IMG/VR virus record: IMGVR_UViG_3300025030_000051
Span: 48,829-112,828 of that record
From: a virus
Length of the DNA: 64,000 nt
Reading direction: 5' to 3' (one strand)
Shown piece by piece: positions 33,680 to 45,061 of this stretch (the first letter of the stretch is position 1; every line of letters begins with the position of its first letter). The notes below the pieces were generated by a model, which was not told where the DNA came from, did not search any database, and worked only from the letters and a program-made list of their open reading frames with translations. A program made the translations under genes and the position numbers.

Positions 33680-34702
33680 TTATTTAATAGGACACGCACC
33701 AGTTTCACATTCTAAGTCATCCTTTAATTCTGATAAATCAACAGTTTTTTTATAAAGTTTATTAAAATCAATTTTGCTAATTAATTCTTCATATTTTTCT
33801 TTTGTAATTTCTTCATAAGGTGCTTGTTTAAATCCGTGTTCACTGTGAAGTAAAAAAGAAACTGATTTTATTGAATTTTTATAATTTTCTTTTAACCACA
33901 GTTGTATATTAGTTAGTTCTTCTTTTTTATAATAAACAGTACAACTAACAGCATTATCAGACCAAATTGTCTGCATTTTTTTTAATAATTCTAACTGTTT
34001 AATGGCATCAAAATCTTTTGTTAAAATTGCATTTTTATTAGATTTCATTGGAAATTCTACAATAACAGTATTTCTATCTAAACTTCCATCTAATTGAGTC
34101 ACATATTCAGTATTAAGTCCAGCATCTTTACATAAATTTACCAAACTATCGTTTGACGACATTCTTATTCTTCTAATATAATACTCAGAATATGCTGAGT
34201 GTAATCCTGGTGTGGTATTAGGAAGAAGACTTAAAGTACCAGAAGGCTTCAAACATGTTAATCTTATTGATTCATTCCAATTATTTTCTTTTGAATATTT
34301 TTTATCAAATTCTTCTATATAATCTGATATTTCATTAAGCCAATTAAGTTGCTCTTCAGTAGATTCACATATTCCAGTTATACCTATTCCAAGACGATTA
34401 TTTTTATGAACTATTTTATTTGTTTCTTCATGTAAATAATTCATGTTTGCAACATTTTTAGAAAATTTATATAATAAAATAACTATTTCTTTTAATTCTT
34501 CTTTTAATTTAATTCGAGGGAGAAATATTTCTGTTAAATTGCAACATTCTTTATTGGCAAGAAAAATTTCAACACAATTATGCACAAGTATATTATTAGC
34601 AAAAAAATTATGATTATTTTCAACACTAATATCATAAACATCTTCATTGGAAATAATTTCTATTTTTTTTATTTTAGTTTTAACAATCGTTCTTTTTTCC
34701 AT
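33680..34702 (-). CDS. nrdJ: class II ribonucleotide reductase, C-terminal half with intein C-fragment
   Basis: 340 residues. The first 42 are an intein C-fragment: EDVYDISVENNHNFFANNILVHN is intein blocks F and G, with the terminal His-Asn, then Cys as +1. The extein continues CVEIFLANKECCNLTEI, the reductase segment that normally follows 'N-P'. Active-site features of adenosylcobalamin-dependent RTPR follow: SGTLSLLPNTTPG, SVSFLLH, and a redox tail ending ETGACPIK like the EGGACPIK of Lactobacillus RTPR. Needs trans-splicing with the half at 35149-36471 to make a reductase of about 638 residues. Confidence 0.92.
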   Translation of the reverse strand: MEKRTIVKTKIKKIEIISNEDVYDISVENNHNFFANNILVHNCVEIFLANKECCNLTEIFLPRIKLKEELKEIVILLYKFSKNVANMNYLHEETNKIVHKNNRLGIGITGICESTEEQLNWLNEISDYIEEFDKKYSKENNWNESIRLTCLKPSGTLSLLPNTTPGLHSAYSEYYIRRIRMSSNDSLVNLCKDAGLNTEYVTQLDGSLDRNTVIVEFPMKSNKNAILTKDFDAIKQLELLKKMQTIWSDNAVSCTVYYKKEELTNIQLWLKENYKNSIKSVSFLLHSEHGFKQAPYEEITKEKYEELISKIDFNKLYKKTVDLSELKDDLECETGACPIK

Positions 34703-35148: not shown

Positions 35149-36471
35149 TTAATTATTTTTTATTTGTATAATAATATCATTTTCACTCAAATTATTAGCC
35201 GCTATCCAGCCTCTGTTTTCTGTATAAACTTTATGATTTGGTGTTAGTTTTAATTCTGTATTATCTTCTAATATTAATTTTATAATATTTACATCTTTTC
35301 TTGTCAACTCAATCTGTCTTATATTATTATATTCTAATTTTTTATTATTTTCATTAAAAGTTAATATTTTGGGTTTATTTTTACATTTAATTAATTTATT
35401 TATTTTAATGTCACCAATTTCAGTAGTTATAAAAGTATCACCGGTTACGCAAGGATTTGCCCCATCAATTGAATTATCACGCTTTTTTCTTCCAAGCTTA
35501 CCAACTGCTCTTGCTAATTTTAAATTTACTAAACCATAAGGTTCACCATTACCATTATAACTATTCCAAAACTCTGGCATTAATTCGTCGTAATCATCTG
35601 CTGCAATACTATTATTTGACATTGCTCTCCAAGATGGTACATTTTCCATATCCCATCTTTTAGCTCTAAGATATAAAATATCATCTGGATCACCTATGGC
35701 CAACTCAGCGCTTCTCCTGACATTTCCACTTACAACTATCTGTCCAATAATATTAAAAACATCTAACACATCAATACTTCTTAATCTTTTGCCTTCTCTA
35801 TTTTTCAATATCGAACAAATATTTTGAATTCCAATATGTAATTCTTCAGGACCTGAAGAAACTCCACCAAAACCTTTTATTAATGCTCCTTTGCTTCTAA
35901 TTAAATCCAATGAATATGAAAATGATTTTCCGTTATTCATAAAAGCTTCTAAAACTTTTTTTAATAATTCAACCCAGCCCTCTCTTTTATCTGGAACTAT
36001 AAAGTCTGCATCTTTAGTATCTTCTCTATATATATTAATATTTTCTTTTATTTTTGGCAATTGATAAACATCTTCTTTTCTTACAGAAACTCCAACACCA
36101 CCTCCAAGCATTAATTCTTCCATACCAAAACAAAAATCTTCTATAGTTGATAATTTTGTAAACCAACAGTTTAATAAACTATCTCCCATGAATTTATCTA
36201 CTATTTTAGTTCCAAGTTGCCATAAAGCTCTACCAGATAAGCAACATTTTAAATTAAATATATAATCATATAATTTTACTAATTCATCGTCTGAAATTTT
36301 AAAATTATATTTTTTAATTGCACTTACGCATCTTTGAATTGTTTCATGCCATTCTTCAGTTATATCTTCATTTTCTTTTAATCTTGCATAAGTTCTTTTA
36401 TAAACTATATAACCAAGAATAGATCCTGGCCAGTTTTTATTTTCATATTTTTTATATAGATTATCTATCAA
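35149..36471 (-). CDS. nrdJ: class II ribonucleotide reductase, N-terminal half with intein N-fragment
   Basis: 440 residues. Residues 1-340 match the RTPR family: GYIVYKRTYARL, LSGRALWQLGT, LLNCWFTKL (active-site Cys), LGGGVGVSV, and VSGNVRRSAELAIGD. At NSIDGANP the extein stops and an intein N-fragment of 100 residues begins: CVTGDTFITTEIGDIKI (block A) and LKLTPNHKVYTENRGW (block B), ending IIIQIKNN and TAA. Canonical split site between blocks B and F. Start is TTG at 36471, without a visible Shine-Dalgarno, after a hairpin-rich leader. The enzyme reduces ribonucleoside triphosphates using B12. Confidence 0.92.
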   Translation of the reverse strand: MIDNLYKKYENKNWPGSILGYIVYKRTYARLKENEDITEEWHETIQRCVSAIKKYNFKISDDELVKLYDYIFNLKCCLSGRALWQLGTKIVDKFMGDSLLNCWFTKLSTIEDFCFGMEELMLGGGVGVSVRKEDVYQLPKIKENINIYREDTKDADFIVPDKREGWVELLKKVLEAFMNNGKSFSYSLDLIRSKGALIKGFGGVSSGPEELHIGIQNICSILKNREGKRLRSIDVLDVFNIIGQIVVSGNVRRSAELAIGDPDDILYLRAKRWDMENVPSWRAMSNNSIAADDYDELMPEFWNSYNGNGEPYGLVNLKLARAVGKLGRKKRDNSIDGANPCVTGDTFITTEIGDIKINKLIKCKNKPKILTFNENNKKLEYNNIRQIELTRKDVNIIKLILEDNTELKLTPNHKVYTENRGWIAANNLSENDIIIQIKNN

Positions 36472-37726: not shown

Positions 37727-38887
37727 TCAATTTTTATCTTTAAAATATTTTTCTTTTAATAATTTTTTTGTTAAGCTATTTCCATTCATTTTTTCATTCA
37801 GAATTTTACCTTGTAAACTATTACTTTCAAAAATTGATAACTTTCCGTTATTTACGTTAAACTGTGCTGGAAATCTAATTTTATCTACTCCGAATCTATT
37901 CTTAATAATAAAAATTCTTGCTGTTTTTGATTCACTGTCTATTTCTTTTCTTGATACTGAAAAAATAAAATCACCAATCATTATTTTAGAATAATCTTCA
38001 GATATTTGTTCTCCAACTATTACATCAGATTCAGCACCTGAACGATTAACTTGAGAAACTGTCCAAACTCCAGTATTAAAATCACCAGACATTCCTCTTA
38101 ATTCTTCATAAATATTTCCTATTTCTAATCTTTTATCTTTATAAAATCTTGGTGCCTTTAATAAATCACCATAATCAACTATAATTAAATCTGGTTTTAA
38201 TCCAAGTTGAATAGATCTTTCAATATGTGATGTTAAAGTATTTATTGTTGCTCTTTTTGGAGGATATTCTTTTACTAATAGTTTTCCTTTTTTTTCATTT
38301 AAATTATTTAGAGATTTTTCTATTTCAATTTCATTAAACTTTAATTCAGAAACATAAATATCTGTAAATCTAGAATAGTATCTTTTAGTTATCATTTCTT
38401 TACTTAATTCTAAAGTATAATGAAATACTATTTTTCCTTGTTTTAAAGCTTCAGTTCCTATATTGGCAAGTTGCCATGAATTATGAGATAGTATTTCATT
38501 ACTATAATAACAATTAACGTCATCTACTTCTAAATCAAATAATATTTGTTTTTTATGAATTATATATTGTTTTTTTAATGTAGTTATACCATTTTTAGTT
38601 TCAATAATATCATTATTATTTATATTTTTTACATATTTCCACTCATTATTTGCCATTATTCTATGTTTGGTTGATGTCTTTAGTGTTTTTCCATTACTAA
38701 AATAATTAATGACAACAAATTTATTTTTTATTGTGAATAATTTATTTATTTTTTTATATCCAAAGGGTGTTAAAACATTAATTTTAAATGGTAATATATA
38801 ATTTATTTCTTCATTGTAATTTAAATTACAATTTTTAAATAAATCTACAATCTTAACAGTTTCAGTTTTTTTTCTAAAATATATCAT
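37727..38887 (-). CDS. replicative helicase (gp41/DnaB), C-terminal half with intein C-fragment
   Basis: 386 residues. Residues 1-136 are an intein C-fragment carrying block B (LKTSTKHRIMANNEWKYV), block F/G (ILFDLEVDDVNCYYSNEILSHN) and Ser as +1. The extein resumes at SWQLANIGTEALKQGK, the half of the Walker A helix that normally follows 'GSPGMGK', and goes on with LIIVDYGDLL (Walker B) and WTVSQVNRSG (DnaB motif H3). ATG overlaps the nuclease stop (ATGA). Forms the ring helicase of the phage replisome after trans-splicing with 39896-40672. Confidence 0.9.
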   Translation of the reverse strand: MIYFRKKTETVKIVDLFKNCNLNYNEEINYILPFKINVLTPFGYKKINKLFTIKNKFVVINYFSNGKTLKTSTKHRIMANNEWKYVKNINNNDIIETKNGITTLKKQYIIHKKQILFDLEVDDVNCYYSNEILSHNSWQLANIGTEALKQGKIVFHYTLELSKEMITKRYYSRFTDIYVSELKFNEIEIEKSLNNLNEKKGKLLVKEYPPKRATINTLTSHIERSIQLGLKPDLIIVDYGDLLKAPRFYKDKRLEIGNIYEELRGMSGDFNTGVWTVSQVNRSGAESDVIVGEQISEDYSKIMIGDFIFSVSRKEIDSESKTARIFIIKNRFGVDKIRFPAQFNVNNGKLSIFESNSLQGKILNEKMNGNSLTKKLLKEKYFKDKN

Positions 38888-39849
38888 TTTAAAAATTTCT
38901 TTATTTTTTTTATTATTTCACTTTTATTGTTATACCAATCATCTTCCCAAACAATCATTATTTTATAATTATTATTTTCTAATTTTTTTATTCTTTTTTT
39001 ATCATGTTCCCATATATCTTTTATTTTTTGTTTTGTCATCTTGTGTTTTTCTTCTCCATTTAAAAAATATTTAGGATTACAATGCCAAAAATCTCCAAAA
39101 AATTCTATTATCTTATTTTTATAAAGTATATCTACAGAATAAGCTCTTTCTTTATAAATTTTTATATCAACATTTGCCTTTGCTTTTATATTGAAATTTT
39201 CACATATATAATTATATAATTCAGCTTCACCCTTGCTTCTTGATACAATAAAATGTTTTGCCCATTTAGTAGCTCCAATATCTAATATTGTTTTACTAAG
39301 TGTAGAACTTATTTTTAATTTTGATATATCTGAATGGTTGTGATTTAAAAATTTAGATGATTTTTTACTATTTTTTGATTGAAGTTCACAAATAATGTTT
39401 TTTGCTTCTTTTTCAGAATAACCCTTTTTAAGCCAGTGTAGTATACTAAGTATACTTTTTTCTTTTTGAATAATTTCAATTTGTTTATTTGCTTCTTTTT
39501 CAGAATAACCCTTTTTAAGCCAATATTCTATATACCAGTTGCTATTTTGTTTTTGTGTTAAACTAACCATATTAGTGGCTTCTTTTTCAGAATAACCCTT
39601 TTTAAGCCAATATTGTGGTTTTCTATTTGTAATAACTTTTGTTTTAAACCACTTTTTAAATTCAGGATCTTTATACTTATCTCTTATTTTTTGTTTTGTT
39701 TCTTCTGTTAATTTTACTATTATTAATTTTAATTCTTTACCGTATTTTTCTTTATATTCATTTCCCCTCATGTTGTGTTTAAATTTTAAATGTGGGACTA
39801 AATTTTTCATTTTTCTATTACATATTTTACAAATTAATAGTTTTTCTAT
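38884..39849 (-). CDS. Vsr-like homing endonuclease lodged between the helicase halves, ATA start
   Basis: The first ATG at 39810 is preceded in frame by EKLLICKICNRK, which completes a zinc finger (C-x2-C ... H-x4-H with HLKFKHNM). The only start before it is ATA at 39849, 7 nt behind a GGAG at 39857-39860. The product is 321 residues: zinc finger, three 29-residue repeats (WLKKGYSEKEA), then a C-terminal nuclease domain (YSVDILYKNKIIEFFGDFWHCNP, IWEHDKKRIKKLENNNYKIMIVWEDDW). That nuclease pattern is the Vsr-like family known from other split-intein genes. Confidence 0.8.
   Translation of the reverse strand: MEKLLICKICNRKMKNLVPHLKFKHNMRGNEYKEKYGKELKLIIVKLTEETKQKIRDKYKDPEFKKWFKTKVITNRKPQYWLKKGYSEKEATNMVSLTQKQNSNWYIEYWLKKGYSEKEANKQIEIIQKEKSILSILHWLKKGYSEKEAKNIICELQSKNSKKSSKFLNHNHSDISKLKISSTLSKTILDIGATKWAKHFIVSRSKGEAELYNYICENFNIKAKANVDIKIYKERAYSVDILYKNKIIEFFGDFWHCNPKYFLNGEEKHKMTKQKIKDIWEHDKKRIKKLENNNYKIMIVWEDDWYNNKSEIIKKIKKFLK
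39404..39610 (-). repeat. three direct repeats of 87 bp
   Basis: Inside the Vsr-like endonuclease, a 30-odd base core recurs at 39404, 39491 and 39578 nearly unchanged. Each unit encodes WLKKGYSEKEA plus 18 variable residues. Such modules in homing nucleases usually contact DNA. Identical spacing (29 codons) suggests recent tandem duplication. Confidence 0.85.
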
Positions 39850-39895
39850 TTGTTTTCTCCATTTTTTATTAAAAATATAAAGAAAACAAATTTTT

Positions 39896-40672
39896 TTAAT
39901 GTTTTTCCTGTACCGGGTGTTTCAATTCATAAGCAAACATTGTTTTTTCATCAATTTTTACTATTTCCCATGGTTTATACCATTTTATTTCATTATCAAT
40001 TTCTATTCCTATTTCATTATATTGTATATCTATTTTTGTGTTTTTACCAACACATTTTCCCATTCCGGGTGACCCAGCAATTATAAATAATTCACCGGTT
40101 TTCGAATCCCCAATACCACCTTCTGTTATTTCATTAATAATATCCCACGGAGTTGCTATAGTATTTCTTTTAGCTTTTTCAAGCATTTCATTTGGAGATT
40201 TTTCTAACAACATTAATCCTATATCTCTATCTTGACCTGCTCTTTCGGCCTCCCTAAATCTTATTTTAACAGCTTCATAATCTCCTTTTTTAATATCGTC
40301 AACAGAATTATAAACAGTTAATTTCCAGTTTTGATTAATACAAAATTCAATAAAGTTATCTTTAATATAAGATAAATCTTCAGCAGTTTTAAAGTCGTAC
40401 GATTCTCTTAATTTTTGTACAATGCTTTCTTTAAAGACATCATTCTTTTCACTTTCAATTTCTGCCTTGAATACTTCTAACGTAGGATTTAATTTGTATT
40501 TTTTGTAATATTCTTTGATTTTATTCACAATCCACTGACAAGCTTCAGAATCAAAAAATTCTGGTTTTAATATGTCTTCAGTTTTAATTAAAAATTTCAA
40601 ATCATATATAAGGCAGGTAACAACCTTAGATTGATAAACTTGTCCGAAGCGTGTTAAGTTATCTAATTGCAT
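39896..40672 (-). CDS. replicative helicase (gp41/DnaB), N-terminal half with intein N-fragment
   Basis: 258 residues. Residues 1-206 hold the helicase N-domain (EDILKPEFFDSEACQWIV) and linker, then ITEGGIGDSKTGELFIIAGSPGMGK, the first part of the Walker A motif. There the extein is cut and an intein N-fragment of 52 residues starts at CVGKNTKIDIQYNEIG (block A-like) and ends PVQEKH, TAA. The break lies in the ATP-binding loop, so this half cannot bind ATP alone. Combined extein length would be about 456 residues, near the 475 of T4 gp41. Confidence 0.9.
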   Translation of the reverse strand: MQLDNLTRFGQVYQSKVVTCLIYDLKFLIKTEDILKPEFFDSEACQWIVNKIKEYYKKYKLNPTLEVFKAEIESEKNDVFKESIVQKLRESYDFKTAEDLSYIKDNFIEFCINQNWKLTVYNSVDDIKKGDYEAVKIRFREAERAGQDRDIGLMLLEKSPNEMLEKAKRNTIATPWDIINEITEGGIGDSKTGELFIIAGSPGMGKCVGKNTKIDIQYNEIGIEIDNEIKWYKPWEIVKIDEKTMFAYELKHPVQEKH

Positions 40673-41115
40673 GATTTGACAAAAAGTTTTGACTTTTCAA
40701 GTAATGAGAATTTTCTTGAAGGCTGTTTTTTATCTACAATCTTACAACCAAATGGATATTGCGGAAAACAAATAGAATTAAATCTATTTTTTCCTTTAAA
40801 TCTTGGAAACCCTGGTATCTGATGTTGTTTGATTCTTCTAAAGAAATTTTTATAGGCATTATCAACAGTTTTAAGTACATATTGTAAATTTTGAGCAAAT
40901 ATTTCTTTATATTCAGGATAAAATTCTTTAAACTCTGTAAGTTCTTTAGATTGATCATAATAATTAATAGATTTACTGTTTATAGATGATTTATATGAAT
41001 TTATTCTTTGTTCAAGACAAACGTTATAGAGATTTCTACAAAGTTCAAATTGATTGTTTAAAGTTTTTTGAATTGTTTTATTTGGGTAGATTCTATATTT
41101 GAAAGATTTTCTCAT
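40663..41115 (-). pseudogene. IS200/IS605-family TnpB fragment, N-terminal 150 aa
   Basis: KSFKYRIYPNKTIQKTL, FELCRNLYNVCLEQRI, LKTVDNAYKNFFRRIKQ and PGFPRFKGKNRFNSICFPQ are the N-terminal helix-turn-helix domain of TnpB (OrfB). Full TnpB is about 400 residues with an RuvC nuclease; here the frame ends in TAG at 40663, within the start of the helicase gene. No TnpA, no C-terminal RuvC and no flanking hairpins are seen. So it is a remnant, possibly still expressed. Confidence 0.8.
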
Positions 41116-41164: not shown

Positions 41165-42223
41165 TTAACTCTCTTTTGCAAATTTATTTAAAATAGAAAA
41201 ATTTGTTGTAATCCATTCATTAATATTCTTAAAAGAATTCCAAATTTTATCGTGTTTGATCAGTTCATAAATATGTATAAGATTTATTTCTGTAATTTTT
41301 TTATTAAATAGTTCAGTAATCTTTAATACGGAAGACTTAGGAATATTGTCATTAGAAAGCTTCATAAGCTTATAATTCAAAATATATTGGTTTATATTGT
41401 CTGATAGTAATCTGAATGCTCTGGCGTCATCTGTGTGATCGTGGGAGTAATCTAGAACGTTATCTACGGTGTATTGTTTGTCTTCATTTAAGAAACTAAA
41501 ATGCTTGTTTATATTCTTAATTCCTAATCCCTTTATTCCCGGTACATTATCACTTTTGTCACCAACCATAGATTTATATAAGGCAAAGTTATTTGGACTA
41601 ACGTTAAATCTTGTTAATACATTTTCTTTTGTGACAACTTCTTTTTTAATAGGATTCCAAACTTTTACTCTATCATCAATTAGCTGATAAAAATCTTTAT
41701 CTGAAGAGATGATAAATAATTCCTGTAGTTCTTTTTTATTTTTACATATATCTATTAAACAGCTTATTGAATCATCAGCTTCAATGCTATCTATACATAT
41801 AAAAGTTATAGGAAGATTTTTTAAATATTGAACAATACGCAATAATTGATATTGCATTTGTTTTCTTTCTTCTTCTTCATTTTCCCACTTATAAGCTCTG
41901 TTTAATCTTGTACCAGATCCACGGTTTTCTTTATAATCAGGAAATATTTTTTTTCTTCTTTTAGAAGAGTCTTTACCATCTAAAACAATAAAAATACGAG
42001 TGGGTCGTAATGCTCTAATAGAAACCCCCAAAGTATGAAGAAAACCGACTATTCCACCAACATGGCGTCCATCTTCATTTGTTGTAGGCATTACAACCCA
42101 AATTCGTATGAAATTATTTAAACAGTCAACAATTAAAATTCTAGAATTTAAAGTTAAATCTTTTTCTTCTTTATGTTCTTTTTCTATTATTTTAAGAAGT
42201 TCTTCAAATTTTTCATTCATCAA
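41165..42223 (-). CDS. 5'-3' exonuclease / flap endonuclease (T4 RNase H-like)
   Basis: 352 residues. LIVDCLNNFIR (first metal Asp), IFIVLDGKDSSKRRKKIFPDYKENR (DGK and Lys/Arg helical arch), IEADDSISCLI (E-x-D-D), SSDKDFYQLI (S-x-D-x-D) and VGDKSDNVPGIKGLGIK (G-D-x-x-D-N and H3TH). This is the FEN/PIN-type nuclease that removes Okazaki primers. The split recombinase gene lies directly upstream with ATGA coupling. Confidence 0.93.
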   Translation of the reverse strand: MMNEKFEELLKIIEKEHKEEKDLTLNSRILIVDCLNNFIRIWVVMPTTNEDGRHVGGIVGFLHTLGVSIRALRPTRIFIVLDGKDSSKRRKKIFPDYKENRGSGTRLNRAYKWENEEEERKQMQYQLLRIVQYLKNLPITFICIDSIEADDSISCLIDICKNKKELQELFIISSDKDFYQLIDDRVKVWNPIKKEVVTKENVLTRFNVSPNNFALYKSMVGDKSDNVPGIKGLGIKNINKHFSFLNEDKQYTVDNVLDYSHDHTDDARAFRLLSDNINQYILNYKLMKLSNDNIPKSSVLKITELFNKKITEINLIHIYELIKHDKIWNSFKNINEWITTNFSILNKFAKES

Positions 42224-43527
42224 TCTTCTACTGTTTCGTCAATTTCTATTTTAGATTTATCTATATTTTCAGAATTTCTGTCTACGTATTTCATAATGAT
42301 TTTATCTGCAAGATTATCATACAACAGCTGTTTCTTTTGTGGATTATTAATTATTAATTCTTCGAAATTTGGGTTTTGAAATCTTGTCATTTCTAAATCG
42401 TTTTCTATCATATACCACCCTTTTACTTCTTTAAATTTATTATCTTTATTTTCTGACTTAGTTTCATCTTCTAATTTTTTGGCTTTAATAATAGAACCAT
42501 ATTTTTTTCCTGTTTCAAACCAAGTTGTAGAATTATCTAACCCTCTATCAAAATAAACATCATAATCACAAGATCTAAAAGATGGACCTAATTTACTTTT
42601 TATAACTTTACAGTTACCTCTAATACCAATTATATCAGTGCCACTTTTTAGTTTGCTTATATTTTTTAATCTCAATCTTAATGATGCATGAAATTGTATT
42701 GCCTTTCCGCCTGATGTTGTATACGGATCTCCAAATGTTACTCCAATATTTGATCTTAATTGATTTGTAAAAATTAAAGCTATTTTATGATTAGCTATTA
42801 CTTTACCAATTTTCCTCATAGCTTGTGATAATATTGTTGCCTTTTGAGTAGCAAACCCTTGTTTATCATATGTTCCCTCATCTTCAACTTTATTTGTTGC
42901 ACCCATAATAGAGTCAAGAGCAATGGTAACTAATCTATCACTGTTTGCTTTTCTAACACTCTCAATAATGTTTTCTATAGTCTGGAATGCGTCTTCTATA
43001 ACTGGTATTGGAGCATAAATCATTTTACCTAAATCTAATCCTATTGCTTTCATAAATTCTCTATCAGCAGAATGTTCAGTATCTATTAATACAGGAACTC
43101 CATTCTTTTTTTGAGTTTCTAATAATATATGATGAACTAATAAAGACTTGGCTGTGTTATGATTCAACATTCCATTTCCAAAATAACATTGATCATCATA
43201 ATTTTTTTCATCTATTACTATATCTACAATTTTATATTTTCCAATATAATTTACTGCTTTTACTAAATGATAATTATCGTCATCACATAATATTTTAGTT
43301 TCATTTGGTATCAATTCGAGTGTTTTTACCCACCCAGAATTAGTAAAAAATTGATGTTTTTTTGCTACATTTTGTTTATAGTTATTTTTTAATATAACTT
43401 GCCAAGTATCTAATAATCCTTTTTCAATGTATTTTTTTATATATACGTATTCTCCATTTTTTGATTTAACTTTTATTTTTTTATTTTCTTCAAGTAATTT
43501 TTTTATTTCTTTAATTTCTACTTGCAT
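42220..43527 (-). CDS. UvsX/RecA recombinase, C-terminal half with large intein C-fragment
   Basis: 435 residues. Residues 1-124 are an intein fragment: VAKKHQFFTNSGWVKTLELIP (block B), YKIVDIVIDEKNYDDQCYFGNGMLNHN (F/G with His-Asn), and Thr as +1. The extein resumes TAKSLLVHHILL, the end of the Walker A loop, followed by LIDTEHSADREFM, VTIALDSIMGA (Walker B), and LIFTNQLRSNIGVTFGDPYTTSGGKAIQFHASLRLRL, the RecA L2/ATP-coupling region. ATG overlaps the upstream nuclease stop by 10 bases. Must be ligated to 44789-45061 to work. Confidence 0.9.
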   Translation of the reverse strand: MQVEIKEIKKLLEENKKIKVKSKNGEYVYIKKYIEKGLLDTWQVILKNNYKQNVAKKHQFFTNSGWVKTLELIPNETKILCDDDNYHLVKAVNYIGKYKIVDIVIDEKNYDDQCYFGNGMLNHNTAKSLLVHHILLETQKKNGVPVLIDTEHSADREFMKAIGLDLGKMIYAPIPVIEDAFQTIENIIESVRKANSDRLVTIALDSIMGATNKVEDEGTYDKQGFATQKATILSQAMRKIGKVIANHKIALIFTNQLRSNIGVTFGDPYTTSGGKAIQFHASLRLRLKNISKLKSGTDIIGIRGNCKVIKSKLGPSFRSCDYDVYFDRGLDNSTTWFETGKKYGSIIKAKKLEDETKSENKDNKFKEVKGWYMIENDLEMTRFQNPNFEELIINNPQKKQLLYDNLADKIIMKYVDRNSENIDKSKIEIDETVED

Positions 43528-44788: not shown

Positions 44789-45061
44789 TTATTCAATTAT
44801 TATATCAATAATTGTATCTTCAGAAACACAACTTTCTAGTCCGTTTATTTCTGTAATTCTTCCAACAGGAATTCCACCGTTTCTTCTATTTGATATTACC
44901 ATATCCATGATTGGGTCTCCAATCGAGACCCAATCTGTAATGTCTGATGGATTCCATTCTGGATTATCAAGAAAATATGCACTAAAAGGACTTTCAGAAG
45001 AATTTATAACATTATATACTGAAGAAATTAATTCATCATGAATTTCACTTTTTTTCTTCAT
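44789..45061 (-). CDS. UvsX/RecA recombinase, N-terminal half with a 13-residue intein N-fragment
   Basis: 90 residues. The first 77 match the UvsX N-terminus (DWVSIGDPIMDMVISNRRNGGIPVGRITEINGLES), the last residues being the start of the Walker A loop. Then CVSEDTIIDIIIE and TAA: a Cys-led block A with 'DT', the first beta-strand of an intein and nothing more. In the partner protein the intein continues from there. The join would give GLES-TAKS, an intact P-loop, and an extein of about 388 residues, as T4 UvsX (391). Confidence 0.9.
   Translation of the reverse strand: MKKKSEIHDELISSVYNVINSSESPFSAYFLDNPEWNPSDITDWVSIGDPIMDMVISNRRNGGIPVGRITEINGLESCVSEDTIIDIIIE

What the first reader, a model, noticed from the sequence alone, without database searches (positions are those of the whole stretch)
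37727..40672. Replicative helicase gene broken inside Walker A by an unusual split intein
The N-half ends ...GSPGMGK then a 52-residue intein-like tail (CVGKNTKIDIQ...). The C-half starts with 136 residues that carry block B, F and G and end HN-S. The split is far earlier than in known gp41 split inteins (about 88 + 37). The C-fragment appears to repeat a 'VLTPFGYKKINKL' element like the strand after block A, so the two fragments may overlap.
Basis: partly seen in the sequence, partly recalled or inferred. Interest (0 to 1): 0.75.

Follow-up and report, generated by a model that had tools for sequence, protein, structure and literature searches.

The report
Split helicase intein, broken unusually early
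A phage's DNA-unwinding enzyme is encoded in two genes that a self-splicing protein element (a split intein) should stitch together, and relatives in other phages show the same element as one piece, as two pieces with a DNA-cutting gene between them, and as two pieces where that gene has been lost, so how proteins become split, and perhaps un-split, can be studied directly.

Summary
The helicase is broken at GSPGMGK|S in its P-loop: an N-gene with a 52-aa intein tail, a Vsr-like endonuclease gene, then a C-gene opening with a 136-aa intein fragment (...SHN|S). A second assembly has the same sequence across the break, and no intact helicase was found in the 112.8-kb record. It is a natural, atypically split intein; the closest solved structure is VidaL, by profile and by fold. 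The fragments do not overlap: cis relatives at the same codon site are 191-204 aa (one 172) and collinear with 52+136=188. The long IntN tail is a clade-specific small beta-subdomain between b2 and a1, predicted to fold and under purifying selection; the break lies in it. About 60 related phage loci (37 non-redundant) fall into three states: split with endonuclease (22), split without it (10, four or five with endonuclease 3' scars) and cis (5, at least 3 separate changes on the tree). In one pair the helicases differ at dS 0.6-1.2 but the inteins at 0.01-0.04, a homing signature. Splicing itself is inferred. Verdict: new variant of a known kind; whether splitting is reversible is the open and interesting part.

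The parts
40055..40672 (-). Helicase N-extein, 206 aa, ends in P-loop GSPGMGK
   Evidence: PHROG_19 164-366; aligned with relatives
39896..40054 (-). IntN, 52 aa (b1-b2 plus most of the inserted subdomain) and stop codon
   Evidence: Family alignment and collinearity with cis inteins; AF2; purifying selection in relatives
38884..39849 (-). Vsr-like endonuclease gene, 308 aa from ATG 39810, or from a possible ATA start at 39849 preceded by GGAG
   Evidence: vsr model 2.5e-4, PF18741 2.6e-5, conserved in relatives
38480..38887 (-). IntC, 136 aa, ends EILSHN
37727..38479 (-). Helicase C-extein, 250 aa, starts SWQL, and stop codon
   Evidence: PHROG_19 367-582, DnaB_C 4.1e-12

Best explanation
The helicase is made as two precursors. 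The N-precursor ends in IntN (b1-b2 plus an inserted small beta subdomain); the C-precursor begins with IntC, the rest of the HINT fold. They associate, rebuild one horseshoe intein and trans-splice: Cys1 of IntN takes the N-extein, Ser+1 attacks, Asn136 cyclises, and GSPGMGK is joined to SWQL, so the P-loop, and with it ATPase activity, exists only after splicing. The gene between the halves is a Vsr-like homing endonuclease that would cut intein-free P-loop DNA of a co-infecting phage, so that IntN-endonuclease-IntC is copied in as one cassette. The element is a VidaL-related, atypically split intein whose break lies inside a clade-specific insertion between b2 and a1, giving an IntN of 33-74 aa in this subclade. 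Shown here: anatomy, homology, collinearity with cis forms, predicted fold, selection, a homing-type divergence pattern in a pair of relatives, endonuclease loss with scars. Inferred: splicing chemistry, association of the window's two fragments, DNA cleavage and its target.
For: Seamless PHROG_19 junction 366/367. Conserved Cys1, block B His and HN-S/T. Cis relatives at the same GK|S site, collinear. AF2 of the L049 cis intein: 166 of 251 residues at pLDDT 90 or more. Best PDB fold match VidaL 6vgv, E 1.5e-9, TM 0.78 on the target; best profile match also VidaL, 2.9e-13. AF2 of the window read-through folds IntN residues 33-78 and IntC with high confidence and leaves the artificial linker disordered. 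Purifying selection on the IntN tail, dN/dS 0.06-0.36, comparable with IntC. L158/L159: exteins dS 1.21 and 0.64, IntN 0.01, IntC 0.04. The window helicase groups with intein-free L002, L003, and with L004, which lacks an intein at this site (100/100), while its intein groups with L124 (98/81): horizontal gain. No intact helicase in the record. Another assembly carries the same sequence across the break.
Against: No splicing data. The window has Asn where most relatives have the block F His (VNCYYSN against VHCYYSN), though L011 and L037 share this. The read-through model contains about 337 out-of-frame residues and no inter-fragment PAE was available, so association is suggested rather than measured. 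The endonuclease lacks an ATG before its zinc finger and may be poorly made. The record is a linear fragment, so a second helicase elsewhere is not excluded. L030 has an IntN of only 27 aa, so the tail is not strictly needed in the wider family.
Confidence: 0.88

Rival explanations
1. Ordinary S1 split intein (VidaL type) in which only the first 12-16 residues of IntN matter; the remaining 36-40 residues are a dispensable appendage without a structural role.
For: VidaL splices with 16 aa (PMC13014065). L011 stops at 33 aa and L030 at 27 aa, and IntN lengths vary widely in the family.
Against: The cis inteins carry the same segment inside one chain; AF2 gives it high confidence; dN/dS 0.06-0.36; conserved W-x-P-[WF]-[DEK] motif in all but L030 and a few others.
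Confidence: 0.15
2. The two halves are remnants of a broken gene or act unspliced, and the phage uses another helicase.
For: No splicing assay; the genome record may be incomplete.
Against: Only these halves in 112.8 kb. In relatives exteins and intein fragments evolve at dN/dS of about 0.03-0.2 in most comparisons even after endonuclease loss. All catalytic residues are kept.
Confidence: 0.06
3. The fragments overlap: part of the N-terminal fold is present twice, in IntN and in IntC.
For: IntC of some relatives opens with a strand that resembles b2 (LSIQY), and MAFFT aligned some IntN tails with the YGYKKI region.
Against: Sum of fragments equals cis length and every part occurs once in the cis chain.
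Confidence: 0.03
4. Sequencing or assembly frame error.
For: AT-rich homopolymers; a Walker-A-like string (ETPGTGKT) in another frame near the end of the N-gene.
Against: Another assembly is identical across the break apart from 1 bp at its contig end; a whole nuclease gene lies in the break; same arrangement in dozens of loci.
Confidence: 0.01

Closest known systems
VidaL split intein (PDB 6vgv/6vgw)
   Same: Best structural and profile match of all PDB entries. Natural atypical split after b2 with short IntN and long IntC; cysteine-dependent. From memory, VidaL came from a T4-like helicase in a Lake Vida metagenome; not checked here.
   Different: VidaL IntN is 16 aa (PMC13014065). The window has 52 aa and its clade has about 48 extra residues between b2 and a1 (L049 72-190 aligns with VidaL 24-141); the break lies inside that insertion.
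gp41-1 / gp41-8 canonical phage helicase split inteins
   Same: Same host protein family; second-best profile match 6qaz.
   Different: Loci L004, L032, L049 and L052 carry a canonical type at the later NR|C site of the same helicase.
AceL-TerL / Cat consensus and PolB16 OarG atypical split inteins
   Same: Short IntN, long IntC; CatC aligns with the window IntC.
   Different: IntN 25, about 30 and 15 aa; different host genes; PolB16 is serine-based (PMC13014065, PMC10189870).
Fractured genes with free-standing Vsr-like (EDxHD) homing endonucleases (Dassa et al. 2009, from memory; paper not held)
   Same: Split intein halves in neighbouring genes with a free-standing Vsr-like endonuclease gene between them.
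   Different: Those I recall were split at the canonical site; here the endonuclease gene sits in the b2-a1 insertion.
Vibrio phage vB_VmeM-32 gp41 (KU160494)
   Same: Named isolate with gp41 fractured in the P-loop by an atypical intein with a gene of similar type between the halves; its annotation shows neither gp41 half.
   Different: Inserted three residues earlier (GVN|TGKS), IntN 27 + IntC 117, no subdomain insertion.

Membership tests
Split inteins (HINT, trans-splicing) | Cys/Ser/Thr at position 1, block B His, C-terminal His-Asn followed by Ser/Thr/Cys | tested here: met
   Cys1 of IntN, H75 of IntC invariant in the alignment, SHN|S
Split inteins (HINT, trans-splicing) | Fragments on separate polypeptides that together make one HINT fold | tested here: met
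   Separate ORFs; collinear with cis forms; AF2 of cis relative and of window read-through; Foldseek intein matches for the cis model. Association of separate chains was not measured.
Split inteins (HINT, trans-splicing) | Protein trans-splicing activity | not testable with these tools
   Needs an assay; selection data are only indirect
VidaL-type atypically split (S1) inteins | Closest homology to VidaL | tested here: met
   Best of all PDB entries by family profile (2.9e-13) and by fold (1.5e-9)
VidaL-type atypically split (S1) inteins | Split between b2 and a1 | tested here: met
   The break falls between helix H73-77 of the subdomain and strand E423-433 just before a1 in the read-through model
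VidaL-type atypically split (S1) inteins | Short IntN (15-35 aa as published, PMC13014065) | tested here: not met
   52 aa; subclade range 33-74 aa. Hence described as a VidaL relative with an insertion, not as a standard S1 intein
Canonical gp41-type split inteins (HEN-site, S0) | IntN about 100 aa, IntC about 35-50 aa, split at the HEN insertion point | tested here: not met
   52 + 136 aa
Vsr-like homing endonucleases of fractured genes | Free-standing nuclease gene with a Vsr-type core between the intein halves | tested here: met
   vsr model 2.5e-4 (below the curated cut-off); conserved E-F-F-G-D-x-W-H and I/V-W-E-x-D-W motifs in relatives
Vsr-like homing endonucleases of fractured genes | Homing: the intein DNA spreads independently of the flanking gene | tested here: met
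   In relatives L158/L159: extein dS 1.21/0.64 against intein 0.01/0.04. For the window, extein and intein trees disagree. Cleavage itself was not tested
DnaB-like phage replicative helicase (PHROG_19) | Helicase match that runs across both halves | tested here: met
   Profile 164-366 and 367-582

The most novel reading that the evidence does not exclude
In this helicase intein clade splitting is reversible and cyclic. An endonuclease gene sits in a surface insertion and keeps the intein split; the endonuclease is lost repeatedly by deletions that leave 3' scars, giving bare split inteins that persist under selection; some of these then re-fuse into one-piece inteins by losing the spacer. Cis L031 and L108 sit inside a group of bare and endonuclease-bearing split members, and L163 is one frameshift from fusion (ATGA overlap). 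Split inteins would then not be an evolutionary dead end.
Probability: 0.5. Interest if true: 0.75.

Novelty: new variant of a known kind. Interest (0 to 1): 0.6.

Why it matters
How split inteins arise, and whether they can go back, is usually argued from isolated cases. Here one intein at one codon site exists as cis, bare split and endonuclease-split forms in related phages, with deletion scars that give a direction to endonuclease loss and a homing signature in the DNA. That makes origin and reversal testable by swapping natural parts. The folded extension of IntN shows a natural way to enlarge a short IntN, of practical interest for trans-splicing tools. The same phage's UvsX gene has a 13-aa IntN, shorter than the 15 aa reported as the shortest characterised (PMC10189870).

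Tried and rejected
(1) The last bases of the N-gene read 'ETPGTGKTLKKF' in another frame, a Walker-A-like string. I suspected a duplicated P-loop or a frameshift, but the DNA has no meaningful match elsewhere in the genome and the in-frame tail aligns with the family, so I take it as coincidence. (2) Sequencing break: rejected. (3) Overlapping fragments: rejected. (4) Searching the annotated phage collection with the L018 IntN gave nothing, and with its IntC only distant inteins, at the top cis inteins in the terminase genes of Ackermannviridae. (5) A tree with VmeM-32 and TerL inteins as outgroups was not usable for rooting because both are very long branches, so trees are unrooted and direction rests on scars and parsimony. 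(6) Endonuclease remnants at the junctions of the cis inteins: none at a convincing level. (7) Dassa 2009 is not in the paper library, and Thiel 2014 and Neugebauer 2017 were seen only as cited by held papers, so priority against them is unchecked.

Full report
What is there. On the minus strand the replicative helicase of a tailed phage (a 112,828-base virus record; the window is its last 64 kb) is encoded in two genes. The first, 40672-39896, is 258 aa: 206 aa of helicase ending in the P-loop GSPGMGK, then 52 aa starting CVGKNTKIDIQ and a stop. The second, 38887-37727, is 386 aa: 136 aa ending EILSHN, then SWQLANIG and the rest of the helicase. The DnaB-like helicase model PHROG_19 is matched from 164 to 366 by the first and from 367 to 582 by the second. 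Between them lies a Vsr-like nuclease gene, 308 aa from its first ATG, whose stop overlaps the start of the second half in ATGA. A search of the whole record with an intact relative's helicase returns only these two halves, as residues 1-204 and 203-454.

Is it real? Another assembled contig carries the region (L023 and L010 are two stretches of it; together they span 47527-38966), with one 1-bp difference at the very end of that contig, inside the nuclease gene. L024, from a further sample, covers 47527-41241, upstream of the break, without a difference. Read through in the frame of the two halves, the stretch holds 54 stops. The same break recurs in other phages (below). A sequencing artefact is excluded.

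Relatives. Searching with the nuclease gave eight loci of diverse phages with the same helicase broken at the same GK| codon and the same kind of nuclease gene between. Searching with aligned C-fragments gave many more. Intein-free relatives (L002, L003: GPGGGK|TW, GPGSGK|TW) show the empty site.

The key comparison. Some relatives have the same intein as one uninterrupted chain at the same site: L031 (193 aa), L108 (193), L049 and further contigs of the same phage (191), L125/L126 (204) and a shorter L139 (172). The window's 52 + 136 = 188 aa align end to end with them. The long tail of the N-fragment is therefore not an overlap with the C-fragment. It is an insertion between strand b2 and helix a1 that the longer cis inteins also have, and the break falls in it. 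AlphaFold2 on the L049 cis intein with 41 family rows gives 166 of 251 residues at pLDDT 90 or more; the insertion forms short strands and a turn of helix. Reading the window through as one chain (stops as Gly; about 337 artificial linker residues) gives high confidence for IntN residues 33-78 and for IntC, with corresponding strands, and a disordered linker. The best solved structure for the L049 model is VidaL, 6vgv, also the best profile match. Against VidaL the L049 intein has about 48 extra residues before a1.

Selection. In pairs of relatives the IntN tail has dN/dS of 0.06-0.36, comparable with IntC in the same pairs, 0.06-0.44; one pair was saturated. In L012/L018 part of the tail overlaps the nuclease gene, so that value alone is less clean.

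Three states of one element. Of 58 classified loci, 37 are non-redundant at 97% within a state: 22 split with a nuclease gene (gap about 750-1,200 nt), 10 split with only -4 to 241 nt between the halves, and 5 cis. Several short gaps contain the 3' end of the nuclease gene: L162 about 80 aa (8e-39), L135 (4e-8), L159 14 of 14 residues (1e-5), L138 9 of 9 (0.009) and, weakly, L109 (0.02). So bare split forms arise by deletion of the nuclease gene. On the tree the three states interleave: parsimony needs 13 changes in all and 4 between cis and split, with at least 3 of the latter forced by well-supported branches. A smaller tree rejects cis L031 and L049 as one clade (p-AU 0.0125), and cis L031 is sister to split L032 by intein (96/96) and by helicase (100/99) in the sets without the later loci. 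The window intein is sister to the bare split L124 (98/81). Whether cis forms are re-fused or ancestral cannot be fixed without a usable outgroup. Parsimony with a split ancestor, and the position of L031 and L108 next to bare forms, favour re-fusion; repeated capture of nuclease cassettes by cis forms remains possible.

Mobility. L158 and L159 have helicase exteins with dS of 1.21 and 0.64 but intein fragments with dS of 0.01 and 0.04. That is what homing leaves behind. L159 has only a scar of the nuclease gene. The window helicase itself groups with relatives that lack an intein at this site (100/100), while its intein groups elsewhere.

How it most likely works. Shown: two coding halves, a full set of intein catalytic residues (apart from the variable block F His), homology and collinearity with one-piece inteins, a predicted common fold, selection, and a homing-type pattern in relatives. 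Inferred from established intein chemistry: IntN and IntC associate, Cys1 and then Ser+1 carry the N-half of the helicase, Asn136 cyclises, and the P-loop is closed as GSPGMGK-SWQL. Until then the helicase cannot bind ATP in the usual way. The nuclease is inferred to cut intein-free P-loop DNA.

What it is not. It is not a canonical gp41-type split. It is not a standard short-IntN S1 intein either, since published natural IntN of that kind are 15-35 aa (PMC13014065) and this is 52. It is a VidaL relative with an insertion, hence a new variant. A published account places the HEN domains of inteins at one highly conserved insertion site (PMC6801210); the free-standing nuclease gene here sits elsewhere in the fold.

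Limits. No splicing or cleavage assay; no inter-chain PAE; short alignments; metagenomic contigs; key older papers were not readable here, so their priority could not be checked.

Noticed in passing
window 44789-45061 (IntN 44792-44830) and 42220-43527 (IntC 43156-43527), minus strand: The UvsX/RecA gene of the same phage is also fractured in its P-loop (GLES|TAKS) with an IntN of only 13 aa (CVSEDTIIDIIIE) and an IntC of 124 aa, with a 404-aa ORF between. 13 aa is shorter than the 15 aa reported as the shortest characterised (PMC10189870). The region is also present, identical, in L023 and L024.
   Followed up: partly
window 35149-36471 and 33680-34702, minus strand: The ribonucleotide reductase gene is a third fractured gene, with a canonical long IntN (CVTGDTF...) and short IntC; a 124-aa ORF without a Pfam match lies between. 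Three split genes in one phage.
   Followed up: no
L032/L033 (3890-5553), L052 (3998-6662), L049 (3029-5608): Some relatives carry a second, canonical split intein further along the same helicase (NR|C). L032 and L052 thus encode the helicase in three pieces that would need two trans-splicing events; L049 has the first intein in cis and the second split.
   Followed up: partly
window 39847-39860, minus strand: The helicase-associated nuclease gene has no ATG/GTG/TTG ahead of its zinc finger. A GGAG stands 7 nt before an in-frame ATA where relative L011 has GGAG, 7 nt, ATG; this suggests an ATA start or a damaged start codon.
   Followed up: partly
window 39380-39640, minus strand: Three near-identical repeats encode (Y/H)WLKKGYSEKEA in the nuclease; similar two-copy motifs (YWI.RGY...A) occur in L011 and vB_VmeM-32.
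   Followed up: no
window 40663-41115, minus strand: A 150-aa N-terminal fragment of a transposase gene (phrog_506) overlaps the start of the helicase N-half.
   Followed up: no
L006 (KU160494, Vibrio phage vB_VmeM-32) 2044-2742, 3953-5119; also 1-656 and 1158-1709: In this named isolate gp41 is fractured in the P-loop by an atypical intein (27+117 aa), and the deposited annotation shows neither gp41 half; its UvsX-like gene is also fractured, with a SegG-like gene between the halves.
   Followed up: partly
L018 and L021, 3' end of the helicase N-half: In one subgroup the nuclease gene appears to overlap the end of IntN in another frame, an ATG falling inside the codons for the conserved ARDV.
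   Followed up: partly
L029 2419-2626: A member of the more distant subgroup has only about 206 nt between the halves, so endonuclease-free split forms seem to occur there too.
   Followed up: no
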